Below are positions 43,724 through 52,428 of a stretch of DNA of 64,000 nt, in pieces; the stretch's first letter is position 1; the number at the start of each line of letters is the position of its first letter. The stretch is from Rudaea cellulosilytica DSM 22992 (GTDB lineage: Bacteria > Pseudomonadota > Gammaproteobacteria > Xanthomonadales > Rhodanobacteraceae): assembly GCF_000378125.1 (NCBI RefSeq), contig NZ_KB899242.1:186001-250000 (forward strand), read 5' to 3'. Below the pieces are notes generated by a model. It saw only the letters and a program-made list of their open reading frames with translations, made no database searches and was not told the origin of the DNA. Position numbers and translations under genes: made by a program.

Positions 43724-44515
43724 ATGGATCTCGATCTTTCCGGCAAACACGCGCTCGTCTGCGGCGGCTCGCAGGGCATCGGCCGCGCCGCGGCGATCGA
43801 GCTCGCGCGCCTCGGCGCCGACGTCACCTTGCTCGCGCGTTCGCGCGAAGGGCTCGAAGCCGCGCTCGCGGCAATGCCCGTCGTGCACGCAAATCAGCGC
43901 CACGCGAGCATCGCCGTCGACATGGGCGACCACGCGGCGCTGCGCAGCAAGGTCGAGGCGATGGTCGCCGCGCCGAATCCCGTACAGATTCTAGTCAACA
44001 ACAGCGGCGGCCCGCCGGGCGGCCAGGCGCAGGGAGCGGGTGTCGAGGAATATCTCGCCGCGTTCCAGCAACACCTGATCGCGAACCAGGTCTTGCTGCA
44101 GGCGGTGCTGCCCGGCATGAAGGCCTCGGGCTGGGGACGCATCGTCAACGTGATCTCGACCTCGGTGAAGGAACCGATCCGCAACCTCGGCGTCTCCAAC
44201 ACGATCCGCGGCGCGGTGGCGAGCTGGGCGAAGACGCTCGCGGCCGAGCTCGGCCAATACGGCATCACGGTCAACAATGTGCTGCCCGGCTACACGAAGA
44301 CGCAGCGGCTGGACCAGATCCTCGGCGAGCGCACCCGGACGACCGGCAAGAGCGAAGAGGAAATCGCCAAGACCATGCTCGCGAGCGTGCCGCTGGGCCG
44401 TTTCGCGGAGGCGTCGGAAATCGCCAACGTGATCGCGTTCCTCGCCTCGCCCGCCGCGGGCTACGTCAACGGCGTCAACGTCCCGGTCGACGGCGGGCGC
44501 ACGCTGTCGCTGTGA
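43724..44515 (+). CDS. Atypical SDR lacking the catalytic tyrosine
   Basis: 263-aa SDR-fold protein. The cofactor loop GGSQGIG (residues 12-18), NNSGGPPGG (in place of NNAG) and INVIST-type serine segment (NVISTSVKEPI) are present. Where YxxxK should be, the sequence reads GVSNTIRGAVASW; neither Tyr nor Lys is found. The family terminus PVDGGRTLSL is intact. It may be a non-classical 3-oxoacyl-ACP-reductase-like protein with altered or no oxidoreductase activity. The stop overlaps the next start (TGATG), so it is translationally coupled to the exported protein gene that follows. Confidence 0.85.
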   Translation: MDLDLSGKHALVCGGSQGIGRAAAIELARLGADVTLLARSREGLEAALAAMPVVHANQRHASIAVDMGDHAALRSKVEAMVAAPNPVQILVNNSGGPPGGQAQGAGVEEYLAAFQQHLIANQVLLQAVLPGMKASGWGRIVNVISTSVKEPIRNLGVSNTIRGAVASWAKTLAAELGQYGITVNNVLPGYTKTQRLDQILGERTRTTGKSEEEIAKTMLASVPLGRFAEASEIANVIAFLASPAAGYVNGVNVPVDGGRTLSL

Positions 44516-45828
44516 TGCGCACCGTCATCGCAGCGACGGGATTCGTCCTCGCTGCGGCGTCCTTGGCTGCCTGCACGCAGGTGGCGAAACCGCAGGTCTC
44601 CGCAGAAACGGGCAACGTGCCAGCCGAGCATGTCGGTCCCGGCACGTTCGCGCGGCTCAATGCGCTGCAGCGCGAAGCGAATTCGCTCAGCTCGCCGCTC
44701 GCCGTGCACGAGTTCTACCGCAGGCGCTACGACGAAAGCGAAGGCGGCCTGCGCAACCTGATCGCTCAGGTGCGCGCCGCGAACGACTCCGAACTCGGCG
44801 ACTACGAAACTGCGGTGCGCCGCTTCCCGTTCGGCACTCCCGGCCTGCGCGGCACGCCCGCCGCGCTGCCCGAGCGCGAACGCTATCGCGCCGTCGACGC
44901 CGCCGACGGCATCGCCGAACGGGCGCTCGGACGCCGCATCGTCGTCGTCAACGAGGCGCACCACGTCGCGCAGACCCGCCTGCTGACGCTGCAATTGCTG
45001 CCGAAGCTGCGCGCGTCCGGCTACACCCATCTCGCTGTCGAAGGACTCGACGAGCGCGAACGCGAACTCGACGCGCGCGGCTATCCGATCCAGGCCAGCG
45101 GCACGTACGTGCGCGAACCACTGTACGGCGAGATCGTGCGCCAGGCACTCGCCCTGGGCTACGTCGTCGTACCCTACGAGTCCTCCCGCCCCGAGGCGGA
45201 CGCGGAAACGCGTGAGGAAGACCAGGCACAGCACATTGTCGAGCGCGTGTTCCGCGCCGCGCCCGAGGCGAGGCTGCTCGTGCATGCCGGTTATGCGCAT
45301 GCACATGAACGCGCCGGTTATCTCGACGCCGAGCCGATGGCGCTGCGCCTGAAGCGCAAGACCGGTTTCGATCCGCTCACGGTAGACCAGACCCTGCTAC
45401 GCCCGGTCGACGCTGCGCGTGAGTATCCGGACTACCGCGAGCTGCTGCGCCGTTTCGCGATCAACGTACCGAGCATTCTCGTCGCCAGCCGCGACGGCGC
45501 AGCATGGAGTCTGGAGCCTGGCTACTACGACGTTAGCGTCGTCCTGCCGCCACCGGCAACGCTCATCATCGGCCGCCCCGACTGGCTCGCGCTCGGCGGC
45601 ACGCGCACGCCCATCGCAATCGACATCGATCTGGGTACCGCACACCTGCCCTGCGTGATCGAAGCGCACTACAAAGCCGAGAGCGACAAGGCCGTACCCG
45701 CCGATCGCACCCTCGTCGAGCGCAGCGGCATGCAAGCGCTGCTGTTCCTGCGCCCGGGCCACTACCGTTTGTCCGCGGTCGACGCCTCGGGCAATACGTT
45801 CGAGCGGCGCACGCTGCGCGTCGATTGA
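44515..45828 (+). CDS. Lipoprotein resembling Tiki/TraB/ChaN/EreA superfamily, paralogue A
   Basis: 437-aa exported protein I cannot assign to a named family. Signal peptide ends LAAC with lipidated C20. The core (about 138-265) has NEAHH (146-150), a Glu in LAVEGLDE (E176), GYP and YGEIVRQALALGY, then HAGYAH (G259, H262). Two (G/N)xxH motifs around conserved glutamates are the hallmark reported for the Tiki/TraB/ChaN/EreA-like superfamily of putative metallo-hydrolases. A C-terminal domain (about 325-437) follows, with YYDVSVVLP, GRPDWLALGGTRTP and PCVIEAHYKAESD. The same order of motifs is in the gene at 46563. Located between the atypical SDR and the carbonic anhydrase genes in one operon. 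Enzyme activity is a hypothesis. Confidence 0.6.
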   Translation: MRTVIAATGFVLAAASLAACTQVAKPQVSAETGNVPAEHVGPGTFARLNALQREANSLSSPLAVHEFYRRRYDESEGGLRNLIAQVRAANDSELGDYETAVRRFPFGTPGLRGTPAALPERERYRAVDAADGIAERALGRRIVVVNEAHHVAQTRLLTLQLLPKLRASGYTHLAVEGLDERERELDARGYPIQASGTYVREPLYGEIVRQALALGYVVVPYESSRPEADAETREEDQAQHIVERVFRAAPEARLLVHAGYAHAHERAGYLDAEPMALRLKRKTGFDPLTVDQTLLRPVDAAREYPDYRELLRRFAINVPSILVASRDGAAWSLEPGYYDVSVVLPPPATLIIGRPDWLALGGTRTPIAIDIDLGTAHLPCVIEAHYKAESDKAVPADRTLVERSGMQALLFLRPGHYRLSAVDASGNTFERRTLRVD

Positions 45829-45863
45829 GGCAAGCTGCTGCGGAGTCCTGCTAAGCTTCGCGC

Positions 45864-46550
45864 ATGACGACATCGCAGCCGACGAAATCCCGCCTCGCCC
45901 ATCTGCTTGAACGCAACCGTACCTGGTCGCTCGACCTGCGCCAGCGAGATCCGGACTTCTTCCGCCGTCTCGCCGACCAGCAGGCGCCGAAGTATCTGTG
46001 GATCGGCTGCTCGGATTCGCGCGTACCGGCAAACCAGATCATCGACATGGCCCCGGGCGAGGTGTTCGTGCATCGCAACGTCGCCAATGTGGTCGTGCAT
46101 ACCGACTTGAATTGTCTTTCGACCGTGCAATTCGCGGTCGACGTGCTCAAGGTCGAACATATCCTCGTCGTCGGTCACTATGGTTGCGGCGGCGTCCGCG
46201 CCGCGCTCGAGGGCGCGCGCCTCGGCCTGGTCGACAATTGGCTGCGCCACGTCGGCGACGTCGCGCAGAAGCACGCGGCGGCGCTGGACAGGATCGATCT
46301 CCTTGCGCCGCGGCATGCGCGCCTGTGCGAACTCAATGTGATCGAGCAGGTCGTCAACGTTGCGCAGACGACCGTGGTGATGGACGCCTGGGAGCGCGGC
46401 CAGAACCTGACCGTGCATGGCTGGTGTTACAGCCTCGAAAACGGCCTGGTCAACGACCTCGGCCTTGAAATCGCGCAACATTCGCAACTGCTCGATCGGT
46501 ATCATCGCGCGCTGGCGCGGCTGCACGAAAATCTGCTGCGCACCGCCTGA
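45864..46550 (+). CDS. can: Beta-class carbonic anhydrase
   Basis: 228-aa zinc enzyme interconverting CO2 and bicarbonate. Zinc ligands C49, H105 and C108 and the catalytic Asp/Arg pair D51-R53 are seen in CSDSRVPANQI and VGHYGCGGVRAAL. The sequence matches E. coli Can closely in its motifs and length (220 aa). Predicted cytoplasmic; no signal peptide. It lies between two paralogous exported proteins, 35 bp after one and 12 bp before the other, an unusual setting. Confidence 0.95.
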   Translation: MTTSQPTKSRLAHLLERNRTWSLDLRQRDPDFFRRLADQQAPKYLWIGCSDSRVPANQIIDMAPGEVFVHRNVANVVVHTDLNCLSTVQFAVDVLKVEHILVVGHYGCGGVRAALEGARLGLVDNWLRHVGDVAQKHAAALDRIDLLAPRHARLCELNVIEQVVNVAQTTVVMDAWERGQNLTVHGWCYSLENGLVNDLGLEIAQHSQLLDRYHRALARLHENLLRTA

Positions 46551-46562
46551 GGGGTCGTCTAG

Positions 46563-47978
46563 ATGAGGCTGCAAATCCTGCTGCTATGTCTGTCGCTTGC
46601 TGCGCCAGTAATCGCGTCCGCGCAAGGCGATCCGGTCACCGAAGCCGGCCGCCGTGGCCTGTTGCGCCGCGGCCAGGAGTCGCCGACGGAACATGAGATG
46701 ACCCCGGCGGAATGGCGGCGTCTGCAACTCGCCGCCGCGGACAAATCCGAGGAAATCATGCGCCGCGCGCAGAAACAGCCCGGTCTGCTCGCGCAATATG
46801 TGACCATGCAACTCGCGTACGACGAGAACAACGAGCGCGCGTTCCGCTTGATTTTCGGCCAGTACCTGTCGTGGTTCCAGACCTGGATCGGCGACTACGA
46901 CGGCGCCGCGCGTTCATTCTCGATCGCCCAACCGGCACAGGCCAACGATGCGCCCTCGCCGCTCACGGGCCCCTGGCACACGCGACCCGCGGACGAGGTG
47001 ATCCTCGAACTGGCGAAGGATCGCAAAGCGGTGTTTTTCAACGAAGCGCATAGCGCGCCGCTCACGCGCACGCTCACGGTGCAGCTGCTCGCGCGCTTGC
47101 GCGCACAGGGCTACACGCATTTTGCCGCGGAAACGCTGTACCTCAAGGAAGCGGAGGGACTGCGCAAGCGCGGCTATCCCACATCCAAGGTCGGCTTCTA
47201 CACCGAAGAGCCAATCTACGGCGAGATGGTGCGCACCGCGCTGCGGCTCGGTTTTACCGTCATCGCCTACGACGCCGAGGATGCCGGCACCGGCGACGCA
47301 CGCGAGCGCGCCGGAGCACAATCGCTGTACGACCAGGTGTTCAAGCGCGATCCGAATGCGCGCCTCGTCGTCAACGCCGGCTTCGGTCACATCCAGAAAT
47401 CCGGCGACTACCTGCGCGGTTCGAGCATGGCGAAGTTCTTCAAGAAGATTTCGAACATCGACCCGCTCTGCGTGGAACAGACCATGATGATCCCGCATGC
47501 GCGCACCGATCAGGACCATCCCTGGTACGCCGCGGTGATGCAGGCCGCGCACCCGGCGCAGCCGTTCGTCTACGTCGACGCCGGCAACAAACCGTGGACG
47601 CTGAAGCCCGAGCTGTACGACGTCAGCGTGTTCTTCCCGCACACGGCGCAAAACGAAAACCGTCCGAGCTGGGTCAGCCTCGGCGGTACGCGCCTGCCCT
47701 ACCCGGTCGGCAGCGACCTCTGCCGCGACCAGTTCCCGTGCATGCTCGAGGCGCGCTACACGAATGAGGGCGACGATGCCGTCGCCGCTGATCGCGCCGT
47801 GCTCAACGTGATCGACCCGAACGCACCGATGTCGCAGCGCGTGCTTTCCAACCACGGCTCGGCGCAAAGCCGGCTGTACCTGTATCCCGGCAACTACCGG
47901 GTGAACGCGCTCGACGGTCGCGGACGGATCGTATCGTCACAACCGGTCACGATCGCGCCTGGCACAACGAAACCTTGA
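46563..47978 (+). CDS. Secreted protein resembling Tiki/TraB/ChaN/EreA superfamily, paralogue B
   Basis: 471-aa exported protein with signal peptide MRLQILLLCLSLAAPVIASAQ (no lipobox). It repeats the core of paralogue A: NEAHS (160-164), FAAETLYL (E190), RGYP, YGEMVRTALRLGF and NAGFGH (G273, H276), with A having NEAHH, AVEGL, RGYP, YGEIVRQALALGY and HAGYAH. The C-terminal domain has YDVSVFFP, RPSWVSLGGTRLP, PCMLEARYTNEGDDAV and NYRVNALDGRG. The N-terminal 130 residues are helical and differ from A. Last gene of the SDR-A-can-B operon. A hairpin follows at 47995-48021. Function unknown; a periplasmic hydrolase acting on a peptide or ester is a guess. Confidence 0.6.
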   Translation: MRLQILLLCLSLAAPVIASAQGDPVTEAGRRGLLRRGQESPTEHEMTPAEWRRLQLAAADKSEEIMRRAQKQPGLLAQYVTMQLAYDENNERAFRLIFGQYLSWFQTWIGDYDGAARSFSIAQPAQANDAPSPLTGPWHTRPADEVILELAKDRKAVFFNEAHSAPLTRTLTVQLLARLRAQGYTHFAAETLYLKEAEGLRKRGYPTSKVGFYTEEPIYGEMVRTALRLGFTVIAYDAEDAGTGDARERAGAQSLYDQVFKRDPNARLVVNAGFGHIQKSGDYLRGSSMAKFFKKISNIDPLCVEQTMMIPHARTDQDHPWYAAVMQAAHPAQPFVYVDAGNKPWTLKPELYDVSVFFPHTAQNENRPSWVSLGGTRLPYPVGSDLCRDQFPCMLEARYTNEGDDAVAADRAVLNVIDPNAPMSQRVLSNHGSAQSRLYLYPGNYRVNALDGRGRIVSSQPVTIAPGTTKP

Positions 47979-47994
47979 ACTGAGAACGATACAG

Positions 47995-48021
47995 CCGCGA
48001 TCGACTGTTGATCGATCGTGG
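47995..48021. terminator. Hairpin after the Tiki-like operon
   Basis: Ten-pair stem CCGCGATCGA / TCGATCGTGG (one G-T pair) with loop CTGTTGA, 16 bp past the stop at 47978. Bases after it (CATGTTCTTC) are only partly T-rich. On the other strand it is 54 bp past the propeller gene stop, so it may serve both. Confidence 0.5.
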
Positions 48022-48074
48022 CATGTTCTTCAACCGGCAGATGGCCGCGCAGTGCGGACGTCTTGAAGTGGCGC

Positions 48075-49237: not shown

Positions 49238-49771
49238 TTACTTGGCTTCGTCGAACAGCGCGTTGTAGCTCGGGATCTTCTTCGCCAGCGCGTCGCGCAG
49301 ATCGTTCGCCTTCTTCAGGTAGGCCAGTTCGTCGGCGCTGTTGTTCGCATTCGCGGGCGGGTTCTTCCATGCGTACACGACGAGGCCGATGTTGTCGCCC
49401 TTGACGTCGCGCATCGGCATGAGGATCACGAATTTCTTCGGATTGTCCTTGGTTCGGTTCCAGCGTGGATCGACGATGGTGATGCCCTTCTTGGAAACAT
49501 CGATGTCATCGGGATCGTCCGGATTGCCTATGCGGTCCGGATAGGAACCGGCGAACATCGTGTAGGCATCCGTCTTGCCGGGCGGCACGCCGTGCAAGGT
49601 GATGCTGAGCAGTTCCGGATGCGCGGCCATTGTTTCGTCGGACAGCTTCTGGCCCAAGATCTTGTGCGCCGGCGGCGTCCAGTTCTTCTCGGCGGCCAGA
49701 GCGGAGGCACTGCCGAATACCGCCACACTCACCAAGGCTGCGGCAAGAGCCGATTTGAATCGCTTGTTCAC
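49238..49771 (-). CDS. Exported protein with unrecognised repeat domain (single copy)
   Basis: 177-aa secreted protein from GTG 49771, chosen for the strong GAGGGAGG site 5 bp upstream and for the signal peptide (about 1-26, ending ALA). Domain signature, residues about 35-165: HPELLSITLHGVPP (51-64), GSYPDRIGNPDDPDDIDV (75-92), LMPMRDVKGDNIGLVVYAW (118-136), and a last helix ANDLRDALAKKIP. The same signature occurs twice in the divergently encoded neighbour at 50057-50962. I do not recognise the family; the order (helix, strand, D-x-x-G-x-x-IG, helix) recalls small ligand-binding PAS/Cache folds. It may be a periplasmic sensor or binding protein. Confidence 0.55.
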   Translation of the reverse strand: MNKRFKSALAAALVSVAVFGSASALAAEKNWTPPAHKILGQKLSDETMAAHPELLSITLHGVPPGKTDAYTMFAGSYPDRIGNPDDPDDIDVSKKGITIVDPRWNRTKDNPKKFVILMPMRDVKGDNIGLVVYAWKNPPANANNSADELAYLKKANDLRDALAKKIPSYNALFDEAK

Positions 49772-50056
49772 GAAAACCTCCCTCTCTTTGATGGATTTGT
49801 CGCATCCGGACACTGGAAGCGTGGACGCAATGTAAGCGGTGACTCTGTACGCTTCCTGTCGCGATCCTAAAAAATTTTTCAGCCGGCGCGATGCATCCGT
49901 TCCGGCCCTGGCACGCGGGCCTGAAAGCGCATTAAGGGAGCTTTCACCTTGTCGACAGGTTGGCCGGCTAGCGTTTCGCGGCCGGCTTGGGCTTGTCGCG
50001 CAAGCGAGCTACGACGGACATCCACTGGCCTGCGACATCGCGCACGGAGAAGGAAC

Positions 50057-50962
50057 ATGACGAACTGCAGCAAACCGCGAGCGTTGCCGCGGCCGGTTTT
50101 CTTCGCGGCATTGCTTGTCGCATTCGCCGCAGAACCAGCGCAGGCGCAGGCGCCTATTCCAGTCAAGGTCTATGCGCAGGAGCTCGTCGAACGCGCACTC
50201 GCTGAGCATCCCGATCTGCGCGCGCTGACGATCTATGCGACGCCGCCGAAAGCATCCGCGAGTATCGTCGTCGCCTCGACGCTCGGCCGTATCGGCAAGG
50301 CCGCCGAGGCCGCCGATATCGAGGTCGTCTCCACGGGCAAGCCGCGCTTCATCGAACGTGCCGCGAACCAGCGTGCCGAAATCGAACTGCCATTGCACGA
50401 TGTCGGCGGGCAGACGATAGGCGCGCTCGACTTGGTCTTCGCGACGCCGGCCGGAACCCATCGCGCCGCGCTTGAGAAGAATGCCGGAGCGCTCCGCGAT
50501 GCGCTCGCACGACGCCTGCTCAACCTCGCCAATCTGACCGAGCCGTTCCCCTATGTCGCTTCGGCGACGACGCGCTCGCGCGCACAGACGCTGATCGAGG
50601 AAGCGTTGCGGCGCCATCCCGAGGTGACCGTGCTCGCGCTGCGCGCGAAAGGTCCGCCGCAGAATGAATTGATCCTGCTCGGCTCGACCTTCGGCCGCCA
50701 CGGCAAAGCCGCCGACGACGACGACATGAAGGTGCTCGATGCACGCGCGCCGATCACCGGCCTGTATTCCAACGGCAAGCGTTTCGGCGCGGATCTGGCG
50801 CTGCGCGACCGCAGCGGCAGCGCAATCGGCACGATGAATGTCGGCTATGCCTACAGCGACGGCGATGACAAGAAAGTGTTGGAAACAAAGGCCGTCGCTT
50901 TGCGCGACGAGATCCAGGCGCGCATCAGCGATGCCTCCACGCTTGGGGAAATCGACCCGTGA
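50057..50962 (+). CDS. Exported protein with two copies of the unrecognised repeat domain
   Basis: 301-aa secreted protein; signal peptide about 1-30 (ending AQA), GGAGAAGGAAC before ATG 50057. Two domains, about 33-155 and 170-292, each show HP(D/E)(L/V), GR(I/H)GKAA, an acidic turn, and (R/H)DxxGxxIG: HPDLRALTIYATPP, LGRIGKAAEAADI, LHDVGGQTIGALDLVF; then HPEVTVLALRAKGPP, FGRHGKAADDDDM, LRDRSGSAIGTMNVGY. It is divergent from the one-copy paralogue, and its stop overlaps the PstS-like gene (GTGA), so it is part of that operon. Fold and ligand unknown. Confidence 0.55.
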   Translation: MTNCSKPRALPRPVFFAALLVAFAAEPAQAQAPIPVKVYAQELVERALAEHPDLRALTIYATPPKASASIVVASTLGRIGKAAEAADIEVVSTGKPRFIERAANQRAEIELPLHDVGGQTIGALDLVFATPAGTHRAALEKNAGALRDALARRLLNLANLTEPFPYVASATTRSRAQTLIEEALRRHPEVTVLALRAKGPPQNELILLGSTFGRHGKAADDDDMKVLDARAPITGLYSNGKRFGADLALRDRSGSAIGTMNVGYAYSDGDDKKVLETKAVALRDEIQARISDASTLGEIDP

Positions 50963-52428
50963 GCATTCGCCATGAATCGCGTTTTCGTGTTTTTTTGGCG
51001 ACGTTGGCGGTCTGGACCGGCGCTGTTCATGCTCCATCTGCAACGGCGGCATCCGATACAGTCGCGATAAACAGCATCGGCGCCGCCACGATGGGCCCGC
51101 TGATGGATGCCTGGATGCAGGCGCTGCACGCGCAGCATCCGGAAATAGCGCGCGGCGCGCGTTGGCAGCACGTCGGCGATGCCGCCGCGATCGGGGCGTT
51201 GATGTTCGAGCAGGCGGACCTCGCGCCGATCACGCGTTCGTTCGAGAAGGAAGAGATAGCGCCCTACGTGCACCAGTTCGCCGGCGACATGATGAAGGCG
51301 CCGCTGACCGTGCGCGTCGCCTCGCGCGACGGCAAGCCGGTGTTCCTCGCTTTCAACAAGCGCCCGGACACGCCTCCCGTGCCGGCCGTGACCGCATTCG
51401 TGCGCTTCGCGCTCAGTGCCGAAGGACAAAAAATCGTCGCCCGGACCCCCGGATTCGAATCGCTGGCAGCGGATGACATCAAGCAGGAACTGGCAAAGAT
51501 CGCCGGCTATGTCGCCAAGCTCGATCCCGCACTGCCGGTCTACAAAGCGGGCACGCCGCTGCACCGCGATATCCGCAGCGTCGGCAGCGACGGCATGAAG
51601 TCGTTGATGGAGCGCTGGATGCACGATTTCCACGCGCTGCAGCCCGGCGTGCGCAAGGGCGATCCTTGGGAGCATCTGGGCACGCTCAACGGCTTCAACG
51701 CGCTCATGGTCGGCATGACCGATCTCGCGCCGATGGGCCGCGAGCTCTGGCCTGACGAAGCCGCCGCGTTCGCCGACTTGCATAAAGGAGAAAAGTTGCT
51801 CGAGATCCGTGTCGCGCGTGGTGGCTTCAACACGCTGCAGCGCACGACAGCGCAGGCGATCTTCGTCAACGCGAAGAATCCGCTCAAGCAGATCACGCTG
51901 GCGCAACTCAAGGCCGCGTTCGGCAAGAATCCGACGATCACACGCTGGGGCCAGCTCGGCCTCGCCGGTGAATGGGCCGACAGACCAATCACGCTCGACG
52001 CGCCGCCGCTGGTCGCGCCGAATGCGATGTCGATGCAGTTCATGGTGCTGCACGGCGGTGAGTGGAGCGAAGGCGTGCATCAGGCTTCGATTGCCGACAC
52101 GGCGCAGGCGATTGCGACCGAACCCGGCGCGCTAGGCTTCGGCGGCCTCGAGGAAGGCGGCCCCGGCCTGCGCGCCGTGCCGGTCGCGCGCGATGCGAAC
52201 GGCGCAGCGATCGAGATCAATGCCGAGACCACATCGAGCGGCCGCTATCCGTTGACGCGCTACATGTACATCCGCTTGCGCCATACACCGGACCAGCCTC
52301 TGCCCGCGCCGATCAGGGAATTCCTGCGCTACGTGCTGAGCCGGCAAGGCCAGTCGCCGATTCCGTATTCCGGCTACTTCCCGCTGAACGCGGGCGAAGT
52401 GCGGGAAGAACTCGCAAAGCTCGAATAA
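50959..52428 (+). CDS. Tandem PstS-like periplasmic substrate-binding protein
   Basis: 489-aa secreted protein from GTG 50959, overlapping the previous gene. The second part (about 200-489) is PstS-like: SVGSDGMKSLMERWMHDFHA, GFNALMVGMTDLAPMGRE, a hinge-like stretch, and C-terminal YPLTRYMYIRLRHTPDQP with YVLSRQGQ. The first part (about 33-195) begins with a similar SIGAATMGPLMDAWMQALHA, ADLAPITRSFEKEE and RFALSAEGQKIV, but lacks the middle of a full binding domain, so it looks like a shortened duplicate. Phosphate or another oxyanion is the family's usual ligand. No pstCAB is visible in the window. Convergent with the small outer-membrane-like gene 6 bp away. Confidence 0.75.
   Translation: MSIRHESRFRVFLATLAVWTGAVHAPSATAASDTVAINSIGAATMGPLMDAWMQALHAQHPEIARGARWQHVGDAAAIGALMFEQADLAPITRSFEKEEIAPYVHQFAGDMMKAPLTVRVASRDGKPVFLAFNKRPDTPPVPAVTAFVRFALSAEGQKIVARTPGFESLAADDIKQELAKIAGYVAKLDPALPVYKAGTPLHRDIRSVGSDGMKSLMERWMHDFHALQPGVRKGDPWEHLGTLNGFNALMVGMTDLAPMGRELWPDEAAAFADLHKGEKLLEIRVARGGFNTLQRTTAQAIFVNAKNPLKQITLAQLKAAFGKNPTITRWGQLGLAGEWADRPITLDAPPLVAPNAMSMQFMVLHGGEWSEGVHQASIADTAQAIATEPGALGFGGLEEGGPGLRAVPVARDANGAAIEINAETTSSGRYPLTRYMYIRLRHTPDQPLPAPIREFLRYVLSRQGQSPIPYSGYFPLNAGEVREELAKLE

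What the first reader, a model, noticed from the sequence alone, without database searches (positions are those of the whole stretch)
44515..47978. Paired exported Tiki/TraB-like proteins flanking a carbonic anhydrase
Two paralogues (44515-45828 and 46563-47978) share an ordered motif set: NEAH, a Glu-bearing strand, RGYP, YGE[IM]VR, then (H/N)AG[YF]xH. They also share a C-terminal domain with GGTR and PC[VM][IL]EA. A beta-carbonic anhydrase lies between them with gaps of 35 and 12 bp, all in one operon after an atypical SDR. The (G/N)xxH pair with Glu residues matches the described hallmark of the Tiki/TraB/ChaN/EreA superfamily. One copy is a lipoprotein, the other soluble. I know of no described system of this composition.
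Basis: partly seen in the sequence, partly recalled or inferred. Interest (0 to 1): 0.8.

Follow-up and report, generated by a model that had tools for sequence, protein, structure and literature searches.

The report
Exported TIKI-fold proteins in kynurenine operon
Two exported proteins with the fold and the four active-site residues of the TIKI enzyme superfamily flank a carbonic anhydrase gene; across related bacteria this protein family sits inside an operon for breaking down 3-hydroxyanthranilate (from tryptophan), so the gene trio here looks like what remains of that operon and not a new stand-alone system.

Summary
Two paralogues, A (44515-45828, lipoprotein) and B (46563-47978, signal peptide), are 34% identical and flank a beta-carbonic anhydrase (CA) in one tight operon after an SDR gene. 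The superfamily guess is supported: predicted structures match TIKI-superfamily proteins best (HopBA1, RRSP, ChaN), profile comparison finds ChaN, and the 2His/2Glu set (B: E161, H163, E190, H276) is conserved in at least 91 of 93 relatives. No Pfam or NCBIfam model covers the family at its cut-off: it is an unnamed family nearest ChaN.

A-CA-B itself is local: three species of one genus (Rudaea by its named member). In over 40 related genomes the family gene lies inside SDR - aldehyde dehydrogenase - CA - [family] - Rid, often followed by 3-hydroxyanthranilate dioxygenase. The dehydrogenase and Rid proteins match 2-aminomuconate-semialdehyde dehydrogenase and 2-aminomuconate deaminase best: the lower kynurenine/3-hydroxyanthranilate pathway. 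The window's genome lacks the dehydrogenase orthologue, and Rid is gone from the locus, while A, CA and B remain under purifying selection. Best guess: periplasmic 2His/2Glu hydrolases; substrate unknown.

The parts
43724..44515 (+). SDR-family oxidoreductase, first gene of the unit; its orthologue leads the 2-aminomuconate operon in relatives
   Evidence: Pfam adh_short_C2 E 2.5e-38; SDR upstream of ALDH-CA-FAM in several relatives
44515..45828 (+). Gene A: exported TIKI-superfamily protein, predicted lipoprotein; 2His/2Glu = E147, H149, E176, H262
   Evidence: core model pTM 0.81, Foldseek HopBA1/RRSP/ChaN
44950..44961 (+). NEAH motif of A (E147, H149)
   Evidence: Invariant in alignments; E and H in 93 of 93 rows
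45298..45300 (+). H262 of A, the GxxH histidine
   Evidence: Conserved in 91 of 93 rows
45864..46550 (+). Beta-carbonic anhydrase, no signal peptide by inspection
   Evidence: orthologue lies in the 2-aminomuconate operon of relatives
46563..47978 (+). Gene B: exported TIKI-superfamily protein with signal peptide; 2His/2Glu = E161, H163, E190, H276
   Evidence: model pTM 0.78, Foldseek first hit HopBA1
47040..47051 (+). NEAH motif of B (E161, H163)
47130..47132 (+). E190 of B, strand-2 glutamate
   Evidence: 93 of 93 rows
47388..47390 (+). H276 of B, the GxxH histidine
   Evidence: 91 of 93 rows
47994..48022 (+). Possible hairpin terminator after B (11-pair stem)
   Evidence: Consensus scan only; 4 sites found against 3.1 expected in shuffles, so weak

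Best explanation
A and B are old paralogues of an unnamed family of exported TIKI-superfamily proteins whose closest known branch is ChaN. The family gene belongs, in much of its range, to an operon for the lower kynurenine/3-hydroxyanthranilate pathway: SDR, 2-aminomuconate-semialdehyde dehydrogenase, beta-CA, TIKI protein, 2-aminomuconate deaminase (Rid) and often 3-hydroxyanthranilate dioxygenase. In the window's lineage the dehydrogenase and Rid genes have gone from the locus, leaving SDR-A-CA-B. Proposed mechanism (inferred): in the periplasm the E-x-H pair after strand 1, the Glu at the end of strand 2 and the GxxH His activate water to cut an ester, amide or peptide bond, as described for other TIKI/Ere enzymes; the helical N-terminal part and the beta-rich C-terminal part would bind substrate or partner. 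The CA acts separately in the cytosol, probably on CO2 or bicarbonate linked to the pathway. Shown here: the genes, homology, fold match, residue conservation, gene order, purifying selection. Inferred: catalysis, location, and a substrate linked to tryptophan or aromatic compounds.
For: Foldseek of A's core: ranks 1-8 are HopBA1, RRSP (5w6l, 6a7h, 6a8j) and ChaN 2g5g, all prob 1.00; full-length B: HopBA1 first, E 4.5e-4. HH comparison with ChaN: prob 90.5, score 45.8, against at most 21.1 in 40 column shuffles and 13.2 reversed. E161, H163, E190 in 93/93 and H276 in 91/93 rows, same E-x-H spacing as the four residues essential in RRSP (PMC6254334). 69 of 70 members have an N-terminal hydrophobic segment. 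Family gene between ALDH or CA and Rid in about 45 loci; dehydrogenase and Rid identities; HAO next to it in many. A-ALDH-CA-B-Rid in a genome of the same genus (L236), and the dehydrogenase orthologue absent from G000. dN/dS of A, B, CA, SDR 0.13-0.31.
Against: TM-scores are moderate (0.4-0.5) and models rest on 12 sequences. No activity is known; four conserved residues do not prove catalysis. About half of family loci are not linked to the pathway genes. The proteins look exported while the pathway enzymes are cytosolic. Loss in the window's lineage is inferred from gene order, not reconstructed on a species tree.
Confidence: 0.65

Rival explanations
1. A and B are envelope hydrolases of general use whose place in the catabolic operon is inherited neighbourhood without functional link.
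For: About half of the loci stand alone, and in others the family lies beyond a divergent gene block, 1.5-4.4 kb from the CA-Rid genes. B is retained after loss of the dehydrogenase. Many genomes carry several copies, up to seven matches.
Against: Members of two deep clades lie within the operon: B-type in the window's family and A-side members in other families of the order (L098, L099; tree). The gene is placed between pathway genes with short gaps in over 40 genomes.
Confidence: 0.35
2. A and B are ChaN-like haem or iron binding proteins and not enzymes; in this operon they would serve the iron need of 3-hydroxyanthranilate dioxygenase or of haem enzymes upstream.
For: ChaN is the nearest family by profile, its structure 2g5g is a cofacial haem complex, and A is a predicted lipoprotein.
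Against: The full 2His/2Glu set of active TIKI enzymes is almost invariant, which a pure binding role does not require. Haem ligands were not tested, and full-length PF04187 membership is below its cut-off.
Confidence: 0.15
3. A, CA and B form a new dedicated three-part system in which the exported proteins and the carbonic anhydrase work together.
For: Tight spacing; same order in three species; all three genes under purifying selection.
Against: Only three species of one genus; elsewhere the same genes sit with dehydrogenase and Rid genes. The CA has no export signal, so the parts are in different compartments. G123 keeps CA-B without A, and G047 has A and CA-B on different contigs.
Confidence: 0.05

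Closest known systems
ChaN (PF04187, haem-binding uptake, TIKI superfamily)
   Same: Profile similarity in register at GExH/NEAH, strand-2 Glu and AGxGH; fold match to 2g5g; A is also a predicted lipoprotein
   Different: Below Pfam cut-off; Asn replaces Gly before Glu-x-His in 91 of 93 rows; extra helical N-terminal and beta-rich C-terminal parts; haem binding untested
RRSP and HopBA1 (TIKI-fold enzymes or effectors)
   Same: Best Foldseek matches; same E-x-H, Glu, His set as RRSP
   Different: No detectable sequence similarity; exported bacterial envelope proteins in a catabolic operon, with no sign of a toxin context
Erythromycin esterase (PF05139) and TraB/GumN (PF01963)
   Same: Same superfamily by the literature (PMC6254334)
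   Different: Not found by the profile comparison (prob 12 and 5); the window's genome has its own TraB-family genes elsewhere
Lower kynurenine / 3-hydroxyanthranilate (2-aminomuconate) degradation gene clusters
   Same: Dehydrogenase, Rid-type deaminase and dioxygenase together
   Different: Adds a beta-CA, an SDR and an exported TIKI protein; the window copy lacks the dehydrogenase and deaminase. No paper in the held library names a CA together with aminomuconate genes

Membership tests
TIKI superfamily | Alpha/beta core with parallel beta sheet like known members | tested here: met
   Foldseek ranks 1-8 for A's core are superfamily members, prob 1.00, TM 0.43-0.49; B first hit HopBA1. Moderate TM, 12-sequence models.
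TIKI superfamily | 2His/2Glu residues in order E-x-H, E, H | tested here: met
   E161, H163, E190 in 93/93 and H276 in 91/93 rows
TIKI superfamily | The four residues cluster in one pocket | not testable with these tools
   No coordinates are returned by the structure tool; their places at strand ends are as expected
TIKI superfamily | Hydrolase activity | not testable with these tools
   Needs purified protein
ChaN family PF04187 | Score above Pfam gathering cut-off (27.7 bits) | tested here: not met
   A 10.9 bits, B no match; best of 70 members E 8e-4
ChaN family PF04187 | Profile-level homology | tested here: met
   HH prob 90.5 with shuffled and reversed controls far below; inconclusive with the narrower profile
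ChaN family PF04187 | Haem binding | not tested
   Ligand residues were not mapped
TraB/GumN PF01963 | Sequence or profile match | tested here: not met
   HH prob 5.4; the family search of the own genome hits other genes
Erythromycin esterase PF05139 | Sequence or profile match | tested here: not met
   HH prob 12 over 58 columns around the last His; no match in the own genome
2-aminomuconate (lower kynurenine) operon | Dehydrogenase, deaminase and HAO beside the family gene in relatives | tested here: met
2-aminomuconate (lower kynurenine) operon | Dehydrogenase and deaminase present at the window locus | tested here: not met
   SDR-A-CA-B only; dehydrogenase orthologue absent from G000
Beta-carbonic anhydrase | Pro_CA match and Cys-Asp-His-Cys ligands | tested here: met

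The most novel reading that the evidence does not exclude
A new family of periplasmic 2His/2Glu hydrolases forms the outer-compartment step of bacterial kynurenine/3-hydroxyanthranilate catabolism, releasing an aromatic amine or amino acid from an ester, amide or peptide before uptake, in an operon that also couples CO2 handling to a carbonic anhydrase.
Probability: 0.2. Interest if true: 0.7.

Novelty: new variant of a known kind. Interest (0 to 1): 0.45.

Why it matters
It adds an exported family near ChaN, with extra parts on both sides of the core, to a superfamily with few tested bacterial members. Its conserved place between 2-aminomuconate pathway genes gives a concrete idea about substrate and induction that growth or expression experiments can test. 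It also shows that a striking gene trio can be the remainder of a larger operon.

Tried and rejected
Sequence search of the PDB with the family profile: no hit up to E 10. NCBIfam on the family: nothing credible. First HH comparison with the narrow 70-row profile was inconclusive (ChaN prob 14); it rose to 93 after distant relatives were added. Two of those rows (L108, L109) were weak hits that carry GExH, so they were removed; prob stayed 90.5. A mobile or plasmid-borne system was considered: only three divergent plasmid relatives, with unrelated neighbours. My first neighbourhood clustering by ORFs was polluted by antisense ORFs and was replaced by targeted profile searches. An NlpC/P60 gene beside the family in some genera was not pursued. 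Literature searches for a CA with aminomuconate genes returned none in the held library; most subscription papers are not held.

Full report
Observation. Reading frames, gaps, motifs and the carbonic anhydrase are as described. A (437 aa) and B (471 aa) are 34% identical over almost their whole length, E 8e-71, so the shared motifs reflect homology and not chance. The SDR stop overlaps the start of A by one base; the gaps before and after the CA are 35 and 12 bp. A has a lipobox and B an ordinary signal peptide (sequence inspection); 69 of 70 family members have an N-terminal hydrophobic segment and 8 match a loose lipobox pattern. A possible hairpin terminator follows B (47994-48022), but such sites are about as frequent in shuffled sequence.

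Family extent. Relatives of B occur in 129 of 148 genomes of the window's family and in 22 of 26 genera. With a single-sequence query only the own genome matched in a class-wide draw of 274 genomes. With a profile of 70 members, 27 of 150 genomes of the order match, 17 of them in the own family, and 2 genomes of other classes among 399 of the phylum. The genus contains Rudaea sp. 3F27F6 (L005, contig NZ_SCNG01000006.1), whose contig length and position agree with G008. A tree of 85 members places A and B in separate deep clades: B in a clade of 41 rows with support 100/100, A with members from other families of the order (several long branches, so deep joins are unsure). A and B are thus old paralogues, not a recent tandem duplication.

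Fold and residues. No Pfam or NCBIfam model reaches its cut-off; the commonest weak Pfam hit is ChaN, in 17 of 70 members, best E 8e-4. AlphaFold2 gave pTM 0.78 for B and 0.81 for the core of A, both from only 12 sequences. Foldseek of A's core against the PDB ranks HopBA1, RRSP (5w6l, and 6a7h and 6a8j, identified as RRSP) and ChaN 2g5g first to eighth, all prob 1.00; PMT is further down at prob 0.99. Full-length B has HopBA1 first (E 4.5e-4) and RRSP at ranks 5 and 7, among unrelated matches to other parts. TM-scores are moderate (0.4-0.5).

Profile test. With two doubtful rows left out, HH comparison with 23 ChaN proteins gives prob 90.5, score 45.8. Forty column shuffles reached at most 21.1, the reversed profile 13.2, and the CA and SDR controls 9.8 and 19.7. 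Erythromycin esterases (prob 12) and TraB (prob 5) are not found by this test. In the global alignment NEAH pairs with GExH, E190 with the strand-2 Glu of ChaN, and AGYxHI with AGxGHV. In 93 rows E161, H163 and E190 are invariant and H276 is kept in 91. RRSP, a characterised TIKI endopeptidase, needs E3900, H3902, E3930 and H4030 (PMC6254334); the E-x-H spacing is identical and the next Glu is 27 rather than 28 residues on. Whether the four residues cluster in space was not measured, because the tool returns no coordinates.

Gene context. A survey of family loci shows the family gene embedded in a recurring order: SDR, aldehyde dehydrogenase, CA, family gene, Rid protein, and in many genomes 3-hydroxyanthranilate dioxygenase (HAO). 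Counts by closely linked order: ALDH-CA-FAM-RID 16, the same with HAO 11, ALDH-FAM-RID 9, with HAO 3, FAM-RID-HAO 3, CA-FAM 5, CA-FAM-RID 2, others singly, and 63 unlinked. Some short orders are cut by contig ends, and in 19 of the unlinked loci the CA-Rid genes lie 1.5-4.4 kb upstream on the same strand. The best solved-structure matches of the dehydrogenase are all 2-aminomuconate 6-semialdehyde dehydrogenase, and that of the Rid protein is 2-aminomuconate deaminase 6izh. HAO is above its family cut-off in 26 of 28 tested genomes. This identifies the lower kynurenine/3-hydroxyanthranilate pathway. In a genome of another family (G843, L098) the order is SDR-ALDH-FAM-CA-RID-HAO with an A-side member, so the association is older than the window's family.

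What happened in the window. In G000, G101 and G008 the order is SDR-A-CA-B. In G047 SDR-A and CA-B are on different contigs. G123 has SDR-CA-B-HAO. G133, of the same genus, has A-ALDH-CA-B-RID (its A reading frame is not continuous), and G076 has SDR-ALDH-B-RID-HAO. The dehydrogenase orthologue is absent from G000, G101, G008, G047 and G123 and present in G076, G133, G062, G112 and G089 (G101 is 85% complete). HAO is retained in G000, about 40 kb downstream of the window. The simplest reading is loss of the dehydrogenase and Rid genes from an A-ALDH-CA-B-Rid arrangement. Whether a Rid orthologue survives elsewhere in G000 was not tested. A, CA, B and SDR show dN/dS of 0.13-0.31 between species, so the remaining genes are under purifying selection.

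Function. The best-supported proposal is a periplasmic hydrolase using the 2His/2Glu site (inference from fold and residues). The haem/iron carrier reading stays open because ChaN is the nearest relative, and the functional link to the pathway is an inference from gene order. The CA and the exported proteins lie in different compartments by sequence, which argues against a physical A-CA-B complex.

Verdict. The system claim is replaced by a better-supported one: an unnamed ChaN-like exported family attached to 2-aminomuconate metabolism, here left with the carbonic anhydrase after loss of the catabolic enzymes. Interest is moderate.

Noticed in passing
L176, L177 (Sphingomonas plasmids), L178 (Chryseobacterium plasmid): Distant family members annotated 'hypothetical protein' on plasmids, with unrelated neighbours; the Chryseobacterium one suggests reach into another phylum.
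   Followed up: partly
window 49238-49813 (-) and 49949-50962 (+): Divergently transcribed exported proteins that seem to share a repeated domain (AEHPDLxxLTI... / AHPELLSITL...); no Pfam match.
   Followed up: no
window 50959-52428 (+): Protein with a PBP-like domain in its C-terminal half (PF12849) and an N-terminal half that looks like a second, degenerate copy.
   Followed up: no
L060-L073, L111-L113: An NlpC/P60 cell-wall hydrolase gene lies just downstream of the family gene in many genomes.
   Followed up: no
G000:C4:112283-112963 and G000:C1:1419961-1420812: The window's genome has two TraB-family genes elsewhere, unrelated to A and B at the sequence level.
   Followed up: no
L041-L079, L098: A beta-carbonic anhydrase is a regular part of the 2-aminomuconate operon in this order, independent of the TIKI-type gene; no held paper mentions it.
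   Followed up: partly
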